Assembly (NCBI GenBank): GCA_904420445.1
Contig: CAJFVJ010000001.1
Coordinates: 445,266-509,265, forward strand
DNA length: 64,000 bases
From: Candidatus Adamsella avium
GTDB lineage: Bacteria > Cyanobacteriota > Vampirovibrionia > Gastranaerophilales > CAJFVJ01
Direction of reading: 5' to 3'
The notes beneath the pieces were generated by a model. It saw only the letters and a list, made by a program, of their open reading frames with translations. It did not search any database and was not told the DNA's origin. This document shows, one piece after another, positions 1-56,137 of the stretch; the first letter of the stretch is position 1; each line of letters opens with the position of its first letter. The position numbers and the translations under genes were made by a program.

Positions 1-2550
1 AGAACTCCCGACTTTTTTGTCCGCTCTCAGCGGTTCGATAGCTTTTGTGACGATTTCTCTAACTTTGAGGATTTTATCGAGTTTTTCGCTTATTTGAGGA
101 TTTTGCCATTCAGGTTTTGCTTTTGGCCAGTCTGATAGCAGAATGCTCTCAAGTCCCATTTTCTGACACTCTGGAGTATGAGAGAAAATATCTTCCGCCT
201 GATGAGGCATAACAGGAACAAGGAATCTTATCAAACTCTGGAATGTTTCAAACAACACTGTCTGGCAGGCTCTTCTTGAAAGCGATTTTTTGCCTGCCGT
301 GTATAATCTGTCTTTGACAATATCAAGATAAAATGCGCTCAGGTCGACAGCTGCGAAATTCTGAAGATATTGATAATATTTGTAGAATTCGTAGTCGTCA
401 AAAGCTTTGGTCACATTAACAGTCAATGTCTGCAATTTGTCGAGAGCATATTTGTCTATGTCTTTGAGGTCTTCGTATTTTACGTAATCTTTTGAAGGGT
501 CAAAGTCATAGAGGTTACCGAGCAGAAATCTTGCGGTGTTTCTGATTTTTTTGAAGACTTCAACAAGCTGTTTAATTATGTTATCGCCGATTTTGACGTC
601 ATTTCGATAGTCAACGCTTGCCGCCCATAATCTCAAAACATCGGTTCCGTAGACATTTATTACTTCCTGCGGAGCAACGGTGTTCCCGAGGCTTTTGCTC
701 ATTTTTCTTCCTTCTGCATCAAGGACGAAACCATGGGTCAGAACGGATTTGTAGGGAGCTGTCCCTTTTGTTGCCACACTTGTAAGAAGTGATGACTGGA
801 ACCATCCTCTGTGCTGGTCAGAGCCTTCGAGGTACATTTCAACGGGTGAGCCTCCTAGTTCGTCTGCTCTTTTGTCAACAACAGCTCTGTGGCTTACTCC
901 TGAGTCAAACCACACATCCATAATGTTGGTTTCTTTGGTGAGATTTTTGCTGTGACATTTCGGACAGCTAAAGCCTTTTGGAAGCAGCTCTTCTGCGCTG
1001 TATTTGCTCCAGGCATCAGATGATTCTTTTTCAAAGATATCCGCAACGGATTTGATTGTTTCAGGGGTAACGATTGCTTCTCCGCAGTCTTTGCAGTAGA
1101 AAACAGGAATTGGTACCCCCCATGCTCTCTGCCTTGAAATACACCAGTCGGAACGGGAGTCAACCATGTTTGAAATTCTTTGTTCTCCGCTTTTTGGTAT
1201 CCATTCGACTTTTGAGATAGCTTCGAGAGCTTCTTTTTTGAAGGCGCCGACGTTGACAAACCACTGAGAGGTTGCACGGTAGATTACAGGTTTTTTGCAT
1301 CTCCAGCAGTGAGGATAGCTGTGTGTTATCTCACTTGATTTAAGCAGGGCACCTGCTTCTTTCAGTTTTTCGATAACGACCTTGTTTCCTTCTTTGTAAG
1401 ATAATCCTTCGAACTCGCCTGCTTCCGAGGTATAAATTCCTTTGTCATTAAGCGGAGAGAGGATACCTATTTTGTATCTTGCACCGACTTCGTAGTCCTC
1501 AAGACCGTGCCCTGGGGCTGTGTGTACGCATCCTGTACCGGCGTCTGTTGTGACGTGGTCGCCTAAGATTATCATGCTTTTTCTCTCAAACAGAGGGTGA
1601 GTTGTGTTGAGATATTCAAACTCGGCACCTTTCAGTGTTGCAAGAACTTTTATGTCTTCTTCTTTCCAGTCTACTCCATTGAGGAACATTCCGAGCAGAG
1701 CCTGAGCAATGAGATAAATATCACCGTCTTTTTCAACAAGGTTGTAGTCAAGATTTGCGTTCAGTGCTATTGCGAGGTTTGACGGGATTGTCCAAGGAGT
1801 TGTTGTCCAGATTACGGCGTAGAGTTTTTTATCTGTATTGATATTTGCTTTTTTGTATACCTTTTGTGCATCTTCGTCGTCGAATTTAAATCTTACATAT
1901 ATGCTGTCTGAGGTATGGTCTGCGTATTCGACTTCTGCTTCTGCGAGTGCTGTTTCACAGTTTGCACACCAGTATACGGGTTTAAGCCCTTTGTATATAT
2001 AGCCTTTTTCATACATTTCTCCGAAGACTCTAATTTGTTCGGCTTCAAATTCGGGGGCAATCGTGATGTAAGGATGTTCCCAATCTCCCCATACACCAAG
2101 ACGTTTGAAGTTGTTTTCCTGTCCGATGAGATTTTTCTTCGCAAATTCACGGCAGAGTCTTCTCAGCTCGACAGGGGTAACAGACTCCCGTCCGCCTTTG
2201 AGATTTTTCACAACAGCATTTTCAATAGGAAGCCCATGGGCGTCATATCCAGGGACATAAGGAGCATAAAATCCTGATTGAGATTTGTATTTAATGAGAA
2301 TATCTTTGAGGATTTTGTTGAGAGCCGTTCCTATATGGATTTTATCGGAACTCAGATACGGTGGTCCGTCGTGCAGTATGAATTTGTTTGTTTTATCTCT
2401 TTGACCTATATTTTTTTCGTAAATTTTATTTTCATTCCAGAATTCTTGTATTTCAACTTCTCTTTTGGCTGCATTTGCTCTCATTGCAAGTGAAGTTTCA
2501 GGCAAGTTGAGCGTGTCTCTGTAGTCGAACTTTTTTTCTGCTGTTGTCAT
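1..2550 (-). CDS. ileS: Isoleucyl-tRNA synthetase, C-terminus cut by window edge
   Basis: Charges tRNA-Ile with isoleucine (class Ia synthetase, cytoplasm). The minus-strand frame is open from an ATG at 2550 to the window edge, 850 codons; the family is usually about 900-940 residues, so only the C-terminal end is missing. The ATP-binding signature reads HIGT (residues 72-75, after DGPPY) instead of HIGH, and KMSKS lies at 616-620 within GRKMSKSLGN. The editing/zinc region with YWCANCETALAE is present. A GGAGAAG ribosome-binding site directly precedes the ATG. No T-box leader was seen upstream. Confidence 0.97.
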   Translation of the reverse strand, partial: MTTAEKKFDYRDTLNLPETSLAMRANAAKREVEIQEFWNENKIYEKNIGQRDKTNKFILHDGPPYLSSDKIHIGTALNKILKDILIKYKSQSGFYAPYVPGYDAHGLPIENAVVKNLKGGRESVTPVELRRLCREFAKKNLIGQENNFKRLGVWGDWEHPYITIAPEFEAEQIRVFGEMYEKGYIYKGLKPVYWCANCETALAEAEVEYADHTSDSIYVRFKFDDEDAQKVYKKANINTDKKLYAVIWTTTPWTIPSNLAIALNANLDYNLVEKDGDIYLIAQALLGMFLNGVDWKEEDIKVLATLKGAEFEYLNTTHPLFERKSMIILGDHVTTDAGTGCVHTAPGHGLEDYEVGARYKIGILSPLNDKGIYTSEAGEFEGLSYKEGNKVVIEKLKEAGALLKSSEITHSYPHCWRCKKPVIYRATSQWFVNVGAFKKEALEAISKVEWIPKSGEQRISNMVDSRSDWCISRQRAWGVPIPVFYCKDCGEAIVTPETIKSVADIFEKESSDAWSKYSAEELLPKGFSCPKCHSKNLTKETNIMDVWFDSGVSHRAVVDKRADELGGSPVEMYLEGSDQHRGWFQSSLLTSVATKGTAPYKSVLTHGFVLDAEGRKMSKSLGNTVAPQEVINVYGTDVLRLWAASVDYRNDVKIGDNIIKQLVEVFKKIRNTARFLLGNLYDFDPSKDYVKYEDLKDIDKYALDKLQTLTVNVTKAFDDYEFYKYYQYLQNFAAVDLSAFYLDIVKDRLYTAGKKSLSRRACQTVLFETFQSLIRFLVPVMPHQAEDIFSHTPECQKMGLESILLSDWPKAKPEWQNPQISEKLDKILKVREIVTKAIEPLRADKKVGSS

Positions 2551-2633
2551 ACTTCTCCTCTCTCTCGCTTATTTATATATAATAATATTAGTATAATACA
2601 AAATTATTTGAGGGTATATTTTTCTTTTTGGTG

Positions 2634-2777
2634 ATTTATATGGTAAATTCCGCCAAAAATTTCCAAAATAACGTCATGCCGAGCGTTAGCAAAGTATCTA
2701 AATAAAAAAGGATTCTGAGAGCTTTAGCCCTCAGAATGACGGATTTTTAATTAGTATCTGTAGAATTTGATATATTA
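2634..2777 (+). mobile_element. MITE-like element, copy A (144 bp)
   Basis: Non-coding element in the ileS-GH57 intergenic gap. It begins ATTTATATGGTAAATTCCGC, ends near GTAGAATTTGATATATTA (imperfect inverted terminal repeat), and contains an internal hairpin around GATTCTGAG...CTCAGAATGAC. Two more copies with the same length and internal order lie at 15746 (inverted) and 41445. No transposase is encoded. The rest of 2551-2863 holds only AT-rich promoter-like sequence. Confidence 0.75.
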
Positions 2778-8200: not shown

Positions 8201-8881
8201 TCAGTTTGGATATTCCCCCTGTATCAGGCTGTTTTCTATATATTTCTCCGTATATCCGATTTTATCTCTTGTTGTTACATAGCATATTCCATTCGGGGTA
8301 TAAATTTTTTTGACGAAAGCGCCTCCCTCTTTGAAAGAGTGTATGCCCATTACTCCAAATAGGTCGTTCTTCTCTTCCATTCTTGTGATGAGTCCGTCTT
8401 GGGCGTTGTATTCAATTGATAGAGATGTTTTTTCTGGGTCAGAGTCTTTGAAGAAGATTGTTTGAACGGGGTTTGAGGATGTTTTGATATCTTTTGAATA
8501 AATCCGCCCGCTTTTTATCATCGCTGATATATCACCGTTTTTGTTCCAGACGGGAGTATTTTCAAGAGCATGCCCGTTTTCATATTTGATTATTGCAGGT
8601 TTTTTATCAGGATAATAATCGCTGTAAAAAACGATTATTCCGTTAAAGTTATCTCCATTCGGAAGCTTGGCTTCTTTTTGCAGAAATTCATCATATGAGG
8701 CGAACATTCTTTGGACTTCTTGTCCTCTGAAGTTTATCTGTGTTTGCCCGAGATAAGCAAGGGACTCAAGAGATGAAGAGAGAGTTGTTTTTTTCTCTTG
8801 ATTTGTTTCAGTATTTGGGACTGGTATTTTGATGTTTGACTGATATTGTTTGAAAGTGTTAGATAGATTTTTGATTTGCAT
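8201..8881 (-). CDS. Hypothetical protein, 226 aa
   Basis: Not recognised. No signal peptide. The N-terminal ~60 residues are polar and Ser/Thr/Gln-rich, followed by a QINFRGQ segment. The remainder (FNGIIVFYSDYYPDKKPA, VWNKNGDISAMIKSG, and FVKKIYTPNGICYV near the C-terminus) has beta-strand-like alternation reminiscent of repeated antiparallel sheets. An AGAGGG ribosome-binding site precedes the ATG. It converges on rpmA and shares its terminator. Confidence 0.6.
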   Translation of the reverse strand: MQIKNLSNTFKQYQSNIKIPVPNTETNQEKKTTLSSSLESLAYLGQTQINFRGQEVQRMFASYDEFLQKEAKLPNGDNFNGIIVFYSDYYPDKKPAIIKYENGHALENTPVWNKNGDISAMIKSGRIYSKDIKTSSNPVQTIFFKDSDPEKTSLSIEYNAQDGLITRMEEKNDLFGVMGIHSFKEGGAFVKKIYTPNGICYVTTRDKIGYTEKYIENSLIQGEYPN

Positions 8882-40378: not shown

Positions 40379-40645
40379 ATGATGGCATTAAATGCAGCAA
40401 CAACAGCGTATTATACCGCTATGGCTCATGATGCAGCTTATTCATCGATGAATAACAATGCTGTAAGAATGAACTTGCTGAGTCCTAACAATCATATGAG
40501 CTTTGGGGCTTTGGCTCAGGCTGATAAACAGGCAGACTTGCAAGGACTTAGAGACAATTTGATGCTTAAGCTTGCAAATGTTTTTCTTGAAAATCAAAGA
40601 GAACAGCAGGCGAAAAAGCAAAACAAGTTAGACACTCTGGCATAA
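40379..40645 (+). CDS. Hypothetical protein, 88 aa
   Basis: Ala/Asn/Gln-rich, starting MMALNAATTAYYTAMAHDAA, with a helical C-terminal half (LRDNLMLKLANVFLENQREQ). No signal peptide or known domain. Gene-like features are AAGGAG upstream, a TATAAT promoter covered by a palindrome, and a terminator directly after the stop, so it forms its own transcription unit. Confidence 0.65.
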   Translation: MMALNAATTAYYTAMAHDAAYSSMNNNAVRMNLLSPNNHMSFGALAQADKQADLQGLRDNLMLKLANVFLENQREQQAKKQNKLDTLA

Positions 40646-50622: not shown

Positions 50623-52503
50623 ATGATTTTGCCGGTTAGTTTAGGTTTTTCAAGGTCAGAATTTAAACGTGATGTTAGGCATCCGTCAGCGCTCGGGCAT
50701 GCCGGTTTTGGTATGAGGATGACTTCTCCTTTGAATAGGGATGTTTTTCAGAAAACAACAGGGGGAATTTCGGGAGCAAGCGCTGATAAAGTCAGTGATT
50801 TATCCTTCGGGTATAACTTTGCTCTCAAGCAGGTAAAGGGTATTCCATGTGCTTATTGCGGGAAGGATGTTCTCTCCCGTGAAGACCTTCATGAAATGAT
50901 TCATCTGAAAGGTTCTGAACTTGTTGATAGAATGAACGGATATTTTCATCAGGCTCCGGATAAGATGAGCGACTCTCAAAGGAGAGCTTTCAAGATTTTG
51001 AAAGAAACGGCTCTTGAACATCCTGATAAAACTGCAGAAGAACTTCTCCCGATACTGTTTGTTGATTCACGAGAAAGGCTGATAAAAAAACAATCAAAGA
51101 TTTATGATGATATCGAAGAGATGGCTGAAGATTTGAAGACGCGTTCCCTTTCAAAGTATGTGAAAGATATCAGAAATCAGGATGTTGTCCTCAAACAGGA
51201 TATCTCTCTTGCAGAGCTGTCGGATTTTTTGATAAACAAACAGCATGTTGCCTACAGAAAAGAGATTATCCAGAATATAAAAGACATAAGAAACAGCCCT
51301 GAGGCAATAAAAAACAACCATGCAAAAACCTGGAATCGTATTATTTCAAAAGTAGATGAACTGCCGTCTTCTACTATCGATGAAGATGCATATCTTGTGA
51401 AATTCATTTCAAAAGCAATCAAAAAGAACATTAATGATGAGCTTATTCCAAAAGATATGGAATCATCAGAAATGTTTTATGCACAGATGTTATATCCGTT
51501 TTTGTCAACAGCGGAGCATATAAAGCCGTTTTCAAAAAAAGGGGTGTCTGATTATTCAAACTATCTTATAACCCATTCTTATTGCAACGGGAAAAGAGCT
51601 GATATGCCTTGGATTGATTATATGTTCAGAAATCCCCGCAGATTTGATAATGTTGTAGAAAATTTATCCGTTGTAAAAGACAAAATGGAAGAGGATCCAA
51701 AGAGGTTTAGAAATCTCGGGCTGCCTGATTATCTCCAGAAAGTGTCCAATACATTGCGCAAAGAGGTAAGACGTTATACTCAGAATGCTTTTGTTAGCAA
51801 GTTTTTGGATGATTTATCAACTGTACAATCAGCGGATATGCCTGATGTGAAAGTGAAGAAAATCAAGAAAAAACGTATGCTTTCAGATGGCGTTGAACCG
51901 TTTACTACAGGTCGGTTGGCTGATTTAAAATCTCTCAAAGGAAGAATGCTTGGAGAGGAGATAGAAAAATACAAATCGTTCTTCTCAAGCAGTGAATCTA
52001 TGGTGAAACTTGCCGCTATAGAAAAAGTTGCCCAGTGGGCAAAAGAAAATCCCGGGAAAAATGCAGAGGAGCTTATGCCTGTTATGTATGAAAATTCCAA
52101 AAAAGCTCTGGTAAAAAACAGGTCGGGGATTTATTCGAGATTGCTGCGGGATGCTTTTGGAGAAGACCCTCAACTTTCTGAAACCATAAAATATCTTCGC
52201 TCAAAAGATCCTCTGTTCAATGAAAACAGGGCTGTTCCGGATAAACAAATAGAAAAATTCCTATCTGATACCGCTCAGGATGAGTATAAACAGTTCTTGT
52301 TTGAAACAACGGAGGCTTTGATAGAAAAAACACCGTCATCATCAAAGAATCAGAAATGGAGCAAAATTGTCAGAAAAATTCCTAATGCTCTCTCTCCTGA
52401 GCATAAGGCAAGCGGTTATCTGACAAAGCTGCTGCTTGAGTCTAGAAATGATGATTATTCATTTGATGCTGATAAATTTTATGAAATACTTTTATCAAAC
52501 TAA
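50623..52503 (+). CDS. HNH-like protein with a ~170-residue internal duplication
   Basis: 626 residues. Zinc-type pair C76-x2-C79 (PCAYCGKDVLS) and, ~220 residues later, AEHIKPF (297-303), N313 and H318-x2-C321 (HSYCNGKRAD): the pieces of an HNH nuclease site split by an insertion. The insertion (about 95-265) is repeated at about 438-607 in near gap-free register: LKG, AEELLPI/AEELMPV, KIYDDI/GIYSRL, KTWNRI/QKWSKI, AYLVKF/GYLTKL. The second copy lacks the HNH parts. No signal peptide is seen and family unknown. Single-gene unit ending in a terminator. Confidence 0.75.
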   Translation: MILPVSLGFSRSEFKRDVRHPSALGHAGFGMRMTSPLNRDVFQKTTGGISGASADKVSDLSFGYNFALKQVKGIPCAYCGKDVLSREDLHEMIHLKGSELVDRMNGYFHQAPDKMSDSQRRAFKILKETALEHPDKTAEELLPILFVDSRERLIKKQSKIYDDIEEMAEDLKTRSLSKYVKDIRNQDVVLKQDISLAELSDFLINKQHVAYRKEIIQNIKDIRNSPEAIKNNHAKTWNRIISKVDELPSSTIDEDAYLVKFISKAIKKNINDELIPKDMESSEMFYAQMLYPFLSTAEHIKPFSKKGVSDYSNYLITHSYCNGKRADMPWIDYMFRNPRRFDNVVENLSVVKDKMEEDPKRFRNLGLPDYLQKVSNTLRKEVRRYTQNAFVSKFLDDLSTVQSADMPDVKVKKIKKKRMLSDGVEPFTTGRLADLKSLKGRMLGEEIEKYKSFFSSSESMVKLAAIEKVAQWAKENPGKNAEELMPVMYENSKKALVKNRSGIYSRLLRDAFGEDPQLSETIKYLRSKDPLFNENRAVPDKQIEKFLSDTAQDEYKQFLFETTEALIEKTPSSSKNQKWSKIVRKIPNALSPEHKASGYLTKLLLESRNDDYSFDADKFYEILLSN

Positions 52504-55396: not shown

Positions 55397-55563
55397 TACT
55401 TGATTGTTTAAATTTAATAAGAAGCGATAAAAATATTTATAGAAAACTATCAAAAGAATCCAGAAAAAGAATTATTCAAAATATAAAAGGACTTGAGTTT
55501 ATTTGTGATGGTATTGATAATATTTTAATGAGAATTATTTCGATGGAATATATTTCAGGATAA
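55375..55563 (+). CDS. Small hypothetical ORF, 62 aa (possible frameshifted half)
   Basis: GTG start inside the preceding ORF, no ribosome-binding site. Sequence LILDCLNLIRSDKNIYRKLS, then KRIIQNIKGLEFICDG and a helical end: basic and helical. A single-base shift within the 55350-55394 overlap would join it to the 51-aa ORF as one protein of ~110 residues. Its end overlaps the convergent ADP-ribosyltransferase-like gene by 29 bases. Confidence 0.4.
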   Translation: MQLEFRLILDCLNLIRSDKNIYRKLSKESRKRIIQNIKGLEFICDGIDNILMRIISMEYISG

Positions 55564-56137
55564 CTTTTGTGAGTCCTTCCTGCTCCTGTTTATCAAGAAC
55601 TTCGAATTTTGCATTTCTCGGCATTACAGCTTCTCTCAGGTGAAAGGGATTTCTTGAGATTCTTGCGCCACGGGGGATTTTTATTTCCATAAACACATTT
55701 TCTCCTCCTGCGCTGTTATCAAGATATCTTGCATATCCCTCGGCAACATCTTTTGATTTTGTGATAAAGGCATATCCACTATCAGGAGTGACGATATCTC
55801 CCGTGTTTGCTTTTTGCAGGATTTTGACACCTTCGTTATTTTCTCCCATAATTCCACGGTAATATTTCCGGGCAAATAACACAGGCGGAAGTTTTTTGAA
55901 CTCTTCGTCCATCTTTAGCATTCTTTCATACAGCTTTGAGCTGATTGATTTGATTTTGTCAAAATTGCCCTCTTGCTCGAGCTTTGAAATTTTTCTGATT
56001 AGAAGGCTGTCCCCTGTGCTCGAAAAAGCACCTTCAAGATGTGAGTTCGTGGCAATTGGATTCAAAGAATGCCTGATTTTTTGCCAGTCAGTGTTTTTTA
56101 TTTTTGATGCGACGTCTGATGTTATTTTCCCAATCAT
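55535..56137 (-). CDS. Stand-alone ADP-ribosyltransferase-like protein
   Basis: 200 residues, no signal peptide. Residues ~85-185 have the R-S-E ADP-ribosyltransferase pattern: Arg94 in RKYYRGIMG, T126-x-S128 in GYAFITKSKDVAEGYA, VFMEIKIPRGARIS, and Glu169 in LREAVMPRNAKFEVL. The first Glu of the ExE motif is replaced by Leu167. The N-terminal ~85 residues are helical. Could be a toxin-like modifier of a host or phage target. Lies between an XRE regulator and tRNA-Ala; a macrodomain gene that could reverse the modification is 3 kb away. Confidence 0.7.
   Translation of the reverse strand: MIGKITSDVASKIKNTDWQKIRHSLNPIATNSHLEGAFSSTGDSLLIRKISKLEQEGNFDKIKSISSKLYERMLKMDEEFKKLPPVLFARKYYRGIMGENNEGVKILQKANTGDIVTPDSGYAFITKSKDVAEGYARYLDNSAGGENVFMEIKIPRGARISRNPFHLREAVMPRNAKFEVLDKQEQEGLTKVILKYIPSK

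What the first reader, a model, noticed from the sequence alone, without database searches (positions are those of the whole stretch)
50623..52503. Unknown 626-aa protein: HNH site split by a domain that is then duplicated
The CxxC half and the EHI...N...HxxC half of an HNH-like site are ~220 residues apart, separated by a ~170-residue helical block that recurs at 438-607 almost without gaps. The second copy lacks HNH elements. I know of no described family with this layout. It could be a nuclease with a long insertion, or a catalytically dead structural protein.
Basis: partly seen in the sequence, partly recalled or inferred. Interest (0 to 1): 0.6.

Follow-up and report, generated by a model that had tools for sequence, protein, structure and literature searches.

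The report
HNH nuclease split by inserted domain
A DNA-cutting enzyme type found in nearly all sampled members of one order of gut bacteria has its zinc-and-active-site module split in two by an inserted helical domain of about 200 residues, and in this protein that domain is present a second time at the end, which makes it a new, apparently active branch of a well-known nuclease superfamily with an unknown job.

Summary
The 626-aa ORF at 50623-52503 carries C76-x2-C79 and, 219 residues later, E298-H299...N313...H318-x2-C321-N322-x2-R325. From E298 onward the spacing equals that of the solved HNH nuclease Gmet_0936. The insert (89-262) recurs at 432-604 (26% identity; score 146, shuffles 39±6).

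The genome is Gastranaerophilales (order of non-photosynthetic Vampirovibrionia). A profile finds relatives in 129 of 131 sampled genomes of that order, in none of five other genomes of the class, and by four scans in no viral contig. In 118 aligned relatives H299, N322 and E/D298 are invariant and the insert (145-300 residues) is always present. Zinc ligands are lost in some clades; the second pair is never kept where the first is broken. Excising the insert in silico restores an end-to-end Pfam HNH match (26.9 bits; controls 20.1-20.4).

Best reading: a working HNH endonuclease with a self-contained helical domain inserted in the loop between zinc knuckle and first strand. In five loci a relative overlaps a gene for a Hel308/Ski2-like helicase, so I infer a DNA-processing role; substrate and biology are unknown. 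No usable structure model was obtained, so zinc geometry is inferred. New variant of a known kind.

The parts
50623..52503 (+). 626-aa split-HNH protein (whole ORF)
   Evidence: ORF; 91% identical orthologue in the other genome held for the genus (L004); dN/dS 0.10 overall
50623..50817 (+). Variable, probably disordered N-terminal leader (residues 1-65) with 'RDVFQK...DLSFG'; similar leaders on other proteins of the order
   Evidence: dN/dS of residues 1-60 is 0.19
50848..50859 (+). First half of the predicted zinc site, C76-A-Y-C79
   Evidence: C76 in 115 and C79 in 87 of 119 aligned rows (118 distinct proteins)
50887..51408 (+). Inserted helical domain, copy 1 (residues 89-262)
   Evidence: Insert present in every relative aligned, C79-to-E298 spacing 145-300, median 191
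51514..51597 (+). Second half of the HNH core: E298-H299 (catalytic), N313, H318-x2-C321 (zinc), N322 (metal), R325
   Evidence: H299 and N322 119/119 rows, E or D298 119/119, R/K325 118/119; Pfam HNH
51916..52434 (+). Second copy of the helical domain (residues 432-604), without HNH elements
   Evidence: score 146 against shuffles 38.8±6.0; hhalign 63.7 against reversed 2.8; family insert profile hit E=5.7e-6

Best explanation
The protein is a metal-dependent ββα-Me (HNH/endonuclease VII type) nuclease, most likely acting on DNA. An independently folding helical domain of about 200 residues has been inserted into the loop between the CxxC zinc knuckle and the first strand of the HNH core. The two halves are inferred to come together in the fold: C76, C79, H318 and C321 hold a structural zinc, E298 and N322 hold the catalytic metal, and H299 activates water. 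The helical domain, and here its second copy at the C terminus, is inferred to bind or select the substrate or a partner. It belongs to a chromosomal family that is nearly universal in Gastranaerophilales. In some genera a relative is encoded in an overlapping gene pair with a Hel308/Ski2-like helicase, so the likely job is cutting or nicking DNA structures made or remodelled by a helicase (repair, recombination or clearance of foreign DNA). Shown here: sequence layout, conservation, duplication, distribution, gene pairing. Inferred: zinc geometry, catalysis, substrate, role.
For: Invariant E/D298, H299, N322 and near-invariant N313, R325, C76 across 118 distinct relatives. [quoted passage not shown]). 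Excision test: PF01844 26.9 bits over profile 1-44 of 47, against 20.1-20.4 bits over 15-44 when the CxxC half is replaced by other segments or both Cys become Ser. Other members also match HNH on their own: PF01844 in 22 of 32 (best 9.5e-10), PHROG HNH families in up to 31 of 32. PDB hits are HNH regions of Cas9 and Gmet_0936 (8d2k E=1.9e-7, 4ogc, 4h9d). The zinc halves go together: both intact 73, both broken 31, first only 13, second only 0. The insert is a self-contained unit that also stands at the C terminus. Purifying selection: dN/dS 0.06 insert, 0.05 HNH half, 0.15 C terminus. A helicase gene overlaps the HNH gene by 4-11 bases in L085, L087, L105, L109 and L116, with Hel308-type models at E about 1e-42 to 1e-55 in the two tested.
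Against: No reliable structure: AlphaFold2 pLDDT 39.6 and 44.6. 31 of 117 sequences lack both zinc pairs and 13 more lack the second. The covariation rests on only about five changes of each trait on the tree, and the independent-pairs test cannot reach significance. One of five members tested (L017) scored lower after excision, and L016 gained end-to-end coverage but no score. In the window's own genome the HNH gene lies beside tsf, not beside a helicase; the leader-bearing helicase is on another contig. No activity data exist.
Confidence: 0.78

Rival explanations
1. An exported effector or interbacterial toxin: the variable N-terminal leader directs the HNH nuclease out of the cell or to a special site, and the nuclease attacks other cells' DNA.
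For: Leaders with [IV][ST]FG recur on unrelated proteins of these genomes: ankyrin-repeat proteins, a RelA/SpoT-domain protein, Ski2-like helicases. HNH domains are common toxin domains (PMC3482391). Paralogues are numerous (up to 5 matches a genome) and often tandem.
Against: No signal peptide, no secretion-linked domain, and no consistent small neighbour that could be an immunity protein in the recurrent-neighbour clusters. Overlap with a helicase gene points to intracellular DNA work. Some members lack the leader.
Confidence: 0.12
2. A restriction or anti-phage defence nuclease (McrA-like or Septu/PtuB-like) that cuts modified or invading DNA.
For: HNH domain fused to a putative recognition domain; pairing with a helicase in some genera; weak PADLOC PtuB matches (E 0.003-0.006) in a few members.
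Against: Near-universal in the order (129 of 131); in 12 loci of one family it shares a neighbourhood with apparent tsaB/tsaE genes, an ordinary housekeeping setting rather than a defence island. No convincing PADLOC match and none on the viral contigs scanned.
Confidence: 0.12
3. A catalytically dead, structural or DNA-binding protein that keeps only the HNH fold.
For: Zinc ligands are lost in about a third of relatives; the second domain copy lacks HNH elements.
Against: H299, E/D298 and N322 are invariant even in the zinc-less clades; the HNH half has dN/dS 0.05.
Confidence: 0.06
4. The CxxC is an unrelated zinc motif (for example part of the helical domain) and the HNH half works without it.
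For: Zinc-less relatives keep the catalytic half; CxxC knuckles are common in many folds.
Against: The second pair is never intact where the first is broken (0 of 117). The protein has no other cysteine. The joined halves match the HNH profile end to end.
Confidence: 0.12

Closest known systems
Gmet_0936 / Gme HNHE (PDB 4h9d), Hpy99I and T4 endonuclease VII: zinc-containing ββα-Me nucleases
   Same: C-x2-C, D/E-H, N, C(H)-x2-C-N order; identical spacing from the catalytic D/E-H to the final Asn as in Gmet_0936
   Different: In Gmet_0936 the second Cys of the first zinc pair is 12 positions before the catalytic D; here 219 (145-300 in the family), filled by a helical domain
HNH domain of IscB and Cas9 (for example AceCas9 8d2k, AnaCas9 4ogc)
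   Same: Best sequence hits of the family's HNH core: PDB E=1.9e-7, NCBIfam IscB model in 21 of 32 members at low scores
   Different: Cyanobacterial IscB-like proteins have the catalytic E 10 positions after the first zinc pair; matches to this family cover the HNH core only; scores (24.3 bits for L025) far below the IscB cut-off of 175
Pfam HNH (PF01844) and HNH_5 (PF14279)
   Same: Most members match
   Different: The window protein matches only with its second half; neither model contains the inserted domain

Membership tests
ββα-Me / HNH endonuclease superfamily (zinc-containing, endonuclease VII-like) | Catalytic [DE]-H followed by metal-binding N directly after the last zinc ligand | tested here: met
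   E/D298, H299 and N322 in all aligned relatives; spacing equals Gmet_0936
ββα-Me / HNH endonuclease superfamily (zinc-containing, endonuclease VII-like) | Two zinc pairs, CxxC and [CH]xxC | tested here: met
   Met in the window protein and 73 of 117 distinct sequences; lost in other clades
ββα-Me / HNH endonuclease superfamily (zinc-containing, endonuclease VII-like) | Profile match above the curated cut-off | tested here: inconclusive
   Natural protein 21.1 bits against 21.4; with the insert excised 26.9
ββα-Me / HNH endonuclease superfamily (zinc-containing, endonuclease VII-like) | ββα fold with the four zinc ligands in contact | tested here: inconclusive
   AlphaFold2 models of pLDDT 39.6 and 44.6 are unusable
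ββα-Me / HNH endonuclease superfamily (zinc-containing, endonuclease VII-like) | Metal-dependent nuclease activity | not testable with these tools
   needs a bench assay
IscB / Cas9 RNA-guided nucleases | RuvC domain split around the HNH domain | tested here: not met
   No RuvC match in Pfam or NCBIfam for any member; only the HNH part of the IscB model matches
Septu PtuB / McrA-type defence nucleases | Match to family models, defence-type context | tested here: not met
   PADLOC PtuB only E 0.003-0.006 in a few members; housekeeping context

The most novel reading that the evidence does not exclude
Gastranaerophilales carry a lineage-specific set of proteins (split-HNH nucleases, a Hel308/Ski2-like helicase that overlaps them in some genera, ankyrin-repeat proteins, a RelA/SpoT-domain protein) that share a short disordered N-terminal leader ending in [IV][ST]FG. 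The leader would target them to one cellular site or export route not yet described, so that the nuclease and helicase would form a new nucleic-acid-processing machine.
Probability: 0.15. Interest if true: 0.72.

Novelty: new variant of a known kind. Interest (0 to 1): 0.52.

Why it matters
It is a large, unannotated nuclease family present in almost every sampled genome of a common gut order. It indicates that the zinc knuckle and catalytic half of an HNH enzyme can be separated by a whole domain while the active site is kept, which ordinary profile searches miss because they see only one half. If the helicase pairing reflects function, it opens the DNA-repair or genome-defence biology of an order that is hard to culture.

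Tried and rejected
Weak PADLOC, DUF2913, RPE3, NifL and similar matches were taken as noise. Cyanobacterial profile hits were examined and are HNH cores of IscB-like proteins with normal 10-residue spacing, not split relatives. The insert profile found no convincing insert-only protein in the fetched DNA apart from fragments of family genes. PDB 9lgi showed a CxxC about 185 residues before its HNH core in the printed alignment, but whether that CxxC belongs to the HNH could not be checked. A first reading of the 900-aa neighbours as M16 peptidases was wrong; they are helicases.

Full report
What is there. The ORF at 50623-52503 (+) encodes 626 aa. The helical block 89-262 recurs at 432-604 with 44 of 168 identities; the local score is 146 against 38.8±6.0 for 500 shuffles. 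The genome is a member of Gastranaerophilales: the 91% identical relative L004 carries that title. The gene follows rpsB and tsf (identified by reading the ORFs).

Relatives. A single-sequence search finds relatives in 280 of 383 genomes of the order. A profile raises this to 129 of 131 sampled genomes of the order (my count from the table). None of five genomes of the same class outside the order has a match there. Hits in photosynthetic cyanobacteria have best E-values of only 2.6e-12; the five genomes re-examined match the HNH core alone, and those inspected are IscB-like proteins with the normal 10-residue spacing between CxxC and E-H. No viral contig was found in four scans. The window's genome has one copy; others have up to five matches. 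Most members are 300-480 aa and lack the second domain copy. The long form with the C-terminal domain is shared with genus g33, which lies in another family of the order.

Conservation. I fetched 80 further loci and aligned 118 distinct proteins (119 rows, the query appearing twice). H299 and N322 are in every row; position 298 is E or D in every row; N313 is in all rows without a gap; R or K stands at 325 in all but one. The insert is always there (C79 to E298: 145-300 residues, median 191). The zinc ligands vary. Counting distinct sequences, both pairs are intact in 73 and both broken in 31; in 13 the first pair is intact and the second broken (8 of these have C-x2-D); in none is the second intact and the first broken. 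That is what one shared zinc predicts, but only about five changes of each trait occurred on the tree, so this is supportive and not a significant independent test. The clades without zinc still keep H299 and N322, which argues that catalysis, not zinc, is under the strongest constraint.

Is the split site one HNH module? When the insert is removed in silico (residues 62-90 joined to 286-360), PF01844 matches end to end, 1-44 of 47, at 26.9 bits (cut-off 21.4). Six controls, in which the CxxC half was replaced by one of four internal segments or one N-terminal segment of the same protein, or in which both Cys were changed to Ser, give 20.1-20.4 bits over 15-44 only. Excised relatives L005 and L003 also lie above the cut-off with full coverage; L016 gains coverage but not score; L017 does not gain. 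The solved enzyme Gmet_0936 has Cys38, Cys41, Asp53-His54, Asn68, Cys73, Cys76-Asn77 (PMC3765158). The distances His-Asn (14) and Asn-first ligand (5) and the adjacency of the last ligand and Asn are identical here. In that structure Cys38 and Cys41 sit in a long loop before strand β1, which is where the insert falls. Both of my AlphaFold2 attempts were of too low confidence to use, so the geometry remains inferred.

The inserted domain. It has no convincing Pfam match. It is homologous throughout the family (hhalign 81.6 between short members and g33). Insert against C-terminal domain scores 63.7 with the query genus and 27.1 in g33 alone, against 2.8 and 5.7 for reversed controls. In several members of about 460 aa the insert itself contains a partial second copy. 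A unit that can stand at the C terminus, or be repeated within the loop, is best read as an independently folding domain, which also makes an insertion between the two zinc pairs physically reasonable. Between the two genomes of this genus dN/dS is 0.06 in the insert, 0.05 in the HNH half, 0.15 in the C terminus and 0.19 in the leader.

Context and function. In L085, L087, L105, L109 and L116 a gene of 898-917 aa overlaps the HNH gene by 4-11 bases. Those tested encode an SF2 helicase closest to Hel308/Ski2-type models (E about 1e-42 to 1e-55, but far below their equivalog cut-offs). In twelve other loci the neighbours are apparent tsaB and tsaE, read from their sequences. The window's genome has a related 889-aa helicase on another contig. 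I therefore think the family cuts or nicks DNA in a helicase-linked process. An exported effector is a main rival, because the N-terminal leader with a [IV][ST]FG motif recurs on unrelated proteins, including that helicase; the positional enrichment is modest (exact DTVSFG-type motif: 4 of 5 occurrences in the first 90 residues, p=0.03).

Verdict. It is a new variant of a known kind: a new order-wide HNH family with a domain inserted between the zinc halves. Literature searches found no description, within an open-access library only.

Noticed in passing
window 50623-50817, 8201-8881 (-), 40379-40645 (+); L134:6695-7354, L135:18719-19540, L136:5841-6602, L149:8295-10769, L155:7221-8348, L162:5360-7218, L179:1312-3981, L076:6555-8186, L101:7324-8454: A disordered N-terminal leader ending in [IV][STN]F[GKR] recurs on unrelated proteins of these genomes: split-HNH proteins, Ski2-like helicases, ankyrin-repeat proteins, a RelA/SpoT-domain protein, and many without any Pfam match. 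It looks like a lineage-specific targeting signal of unknown function.
   Followed up: partly
L085:5086-7839, L087:1329-4040, L105:7486-10206, L109:4967-7714, L116:4991-7687; L179:1312-3981 in the window's genome: Hel308/Ski2-like SF2 helicases of 889-917 aa, distinct from a shorter (about 770 aa) homologue seen in nearly all genomes sampled; in five loci the gene overlaps a split-HNH gene.
   Followed up: partly
window 55535-56137 (-): 200-aa protein between tRNA-Ile and tRNA-Ala whose sequence resembles an ADP-ribosyltransferase fold by eye (YRG... GYAFITKS... REAVMP), with no Pfam or NCBIfam match.
   Followed up: no
L014:985-2262 and 2306-2716 (-): A genus g33 copy of the long form appears as two ORFs in different frames, either a frameshifted gene or an assembly error.
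   Followed up: no
L065, L066, L069, L077, L078, L054, L064, L097 (members of about 460 aa): The insert contains a partial tandem copy of itself (profile positions about 1-145, then about 55-168), so the inserted domain has grown by internal duplication more than once.
   Followed up: partly
L060, L093, L114, L123 (N termini): One subfamily has a different short N terminus (KKxKxITxxNYLKYYYDIPYEGxTSxGKPLxKLK) in place of the [IV]SFG leader.
   Followed up: no
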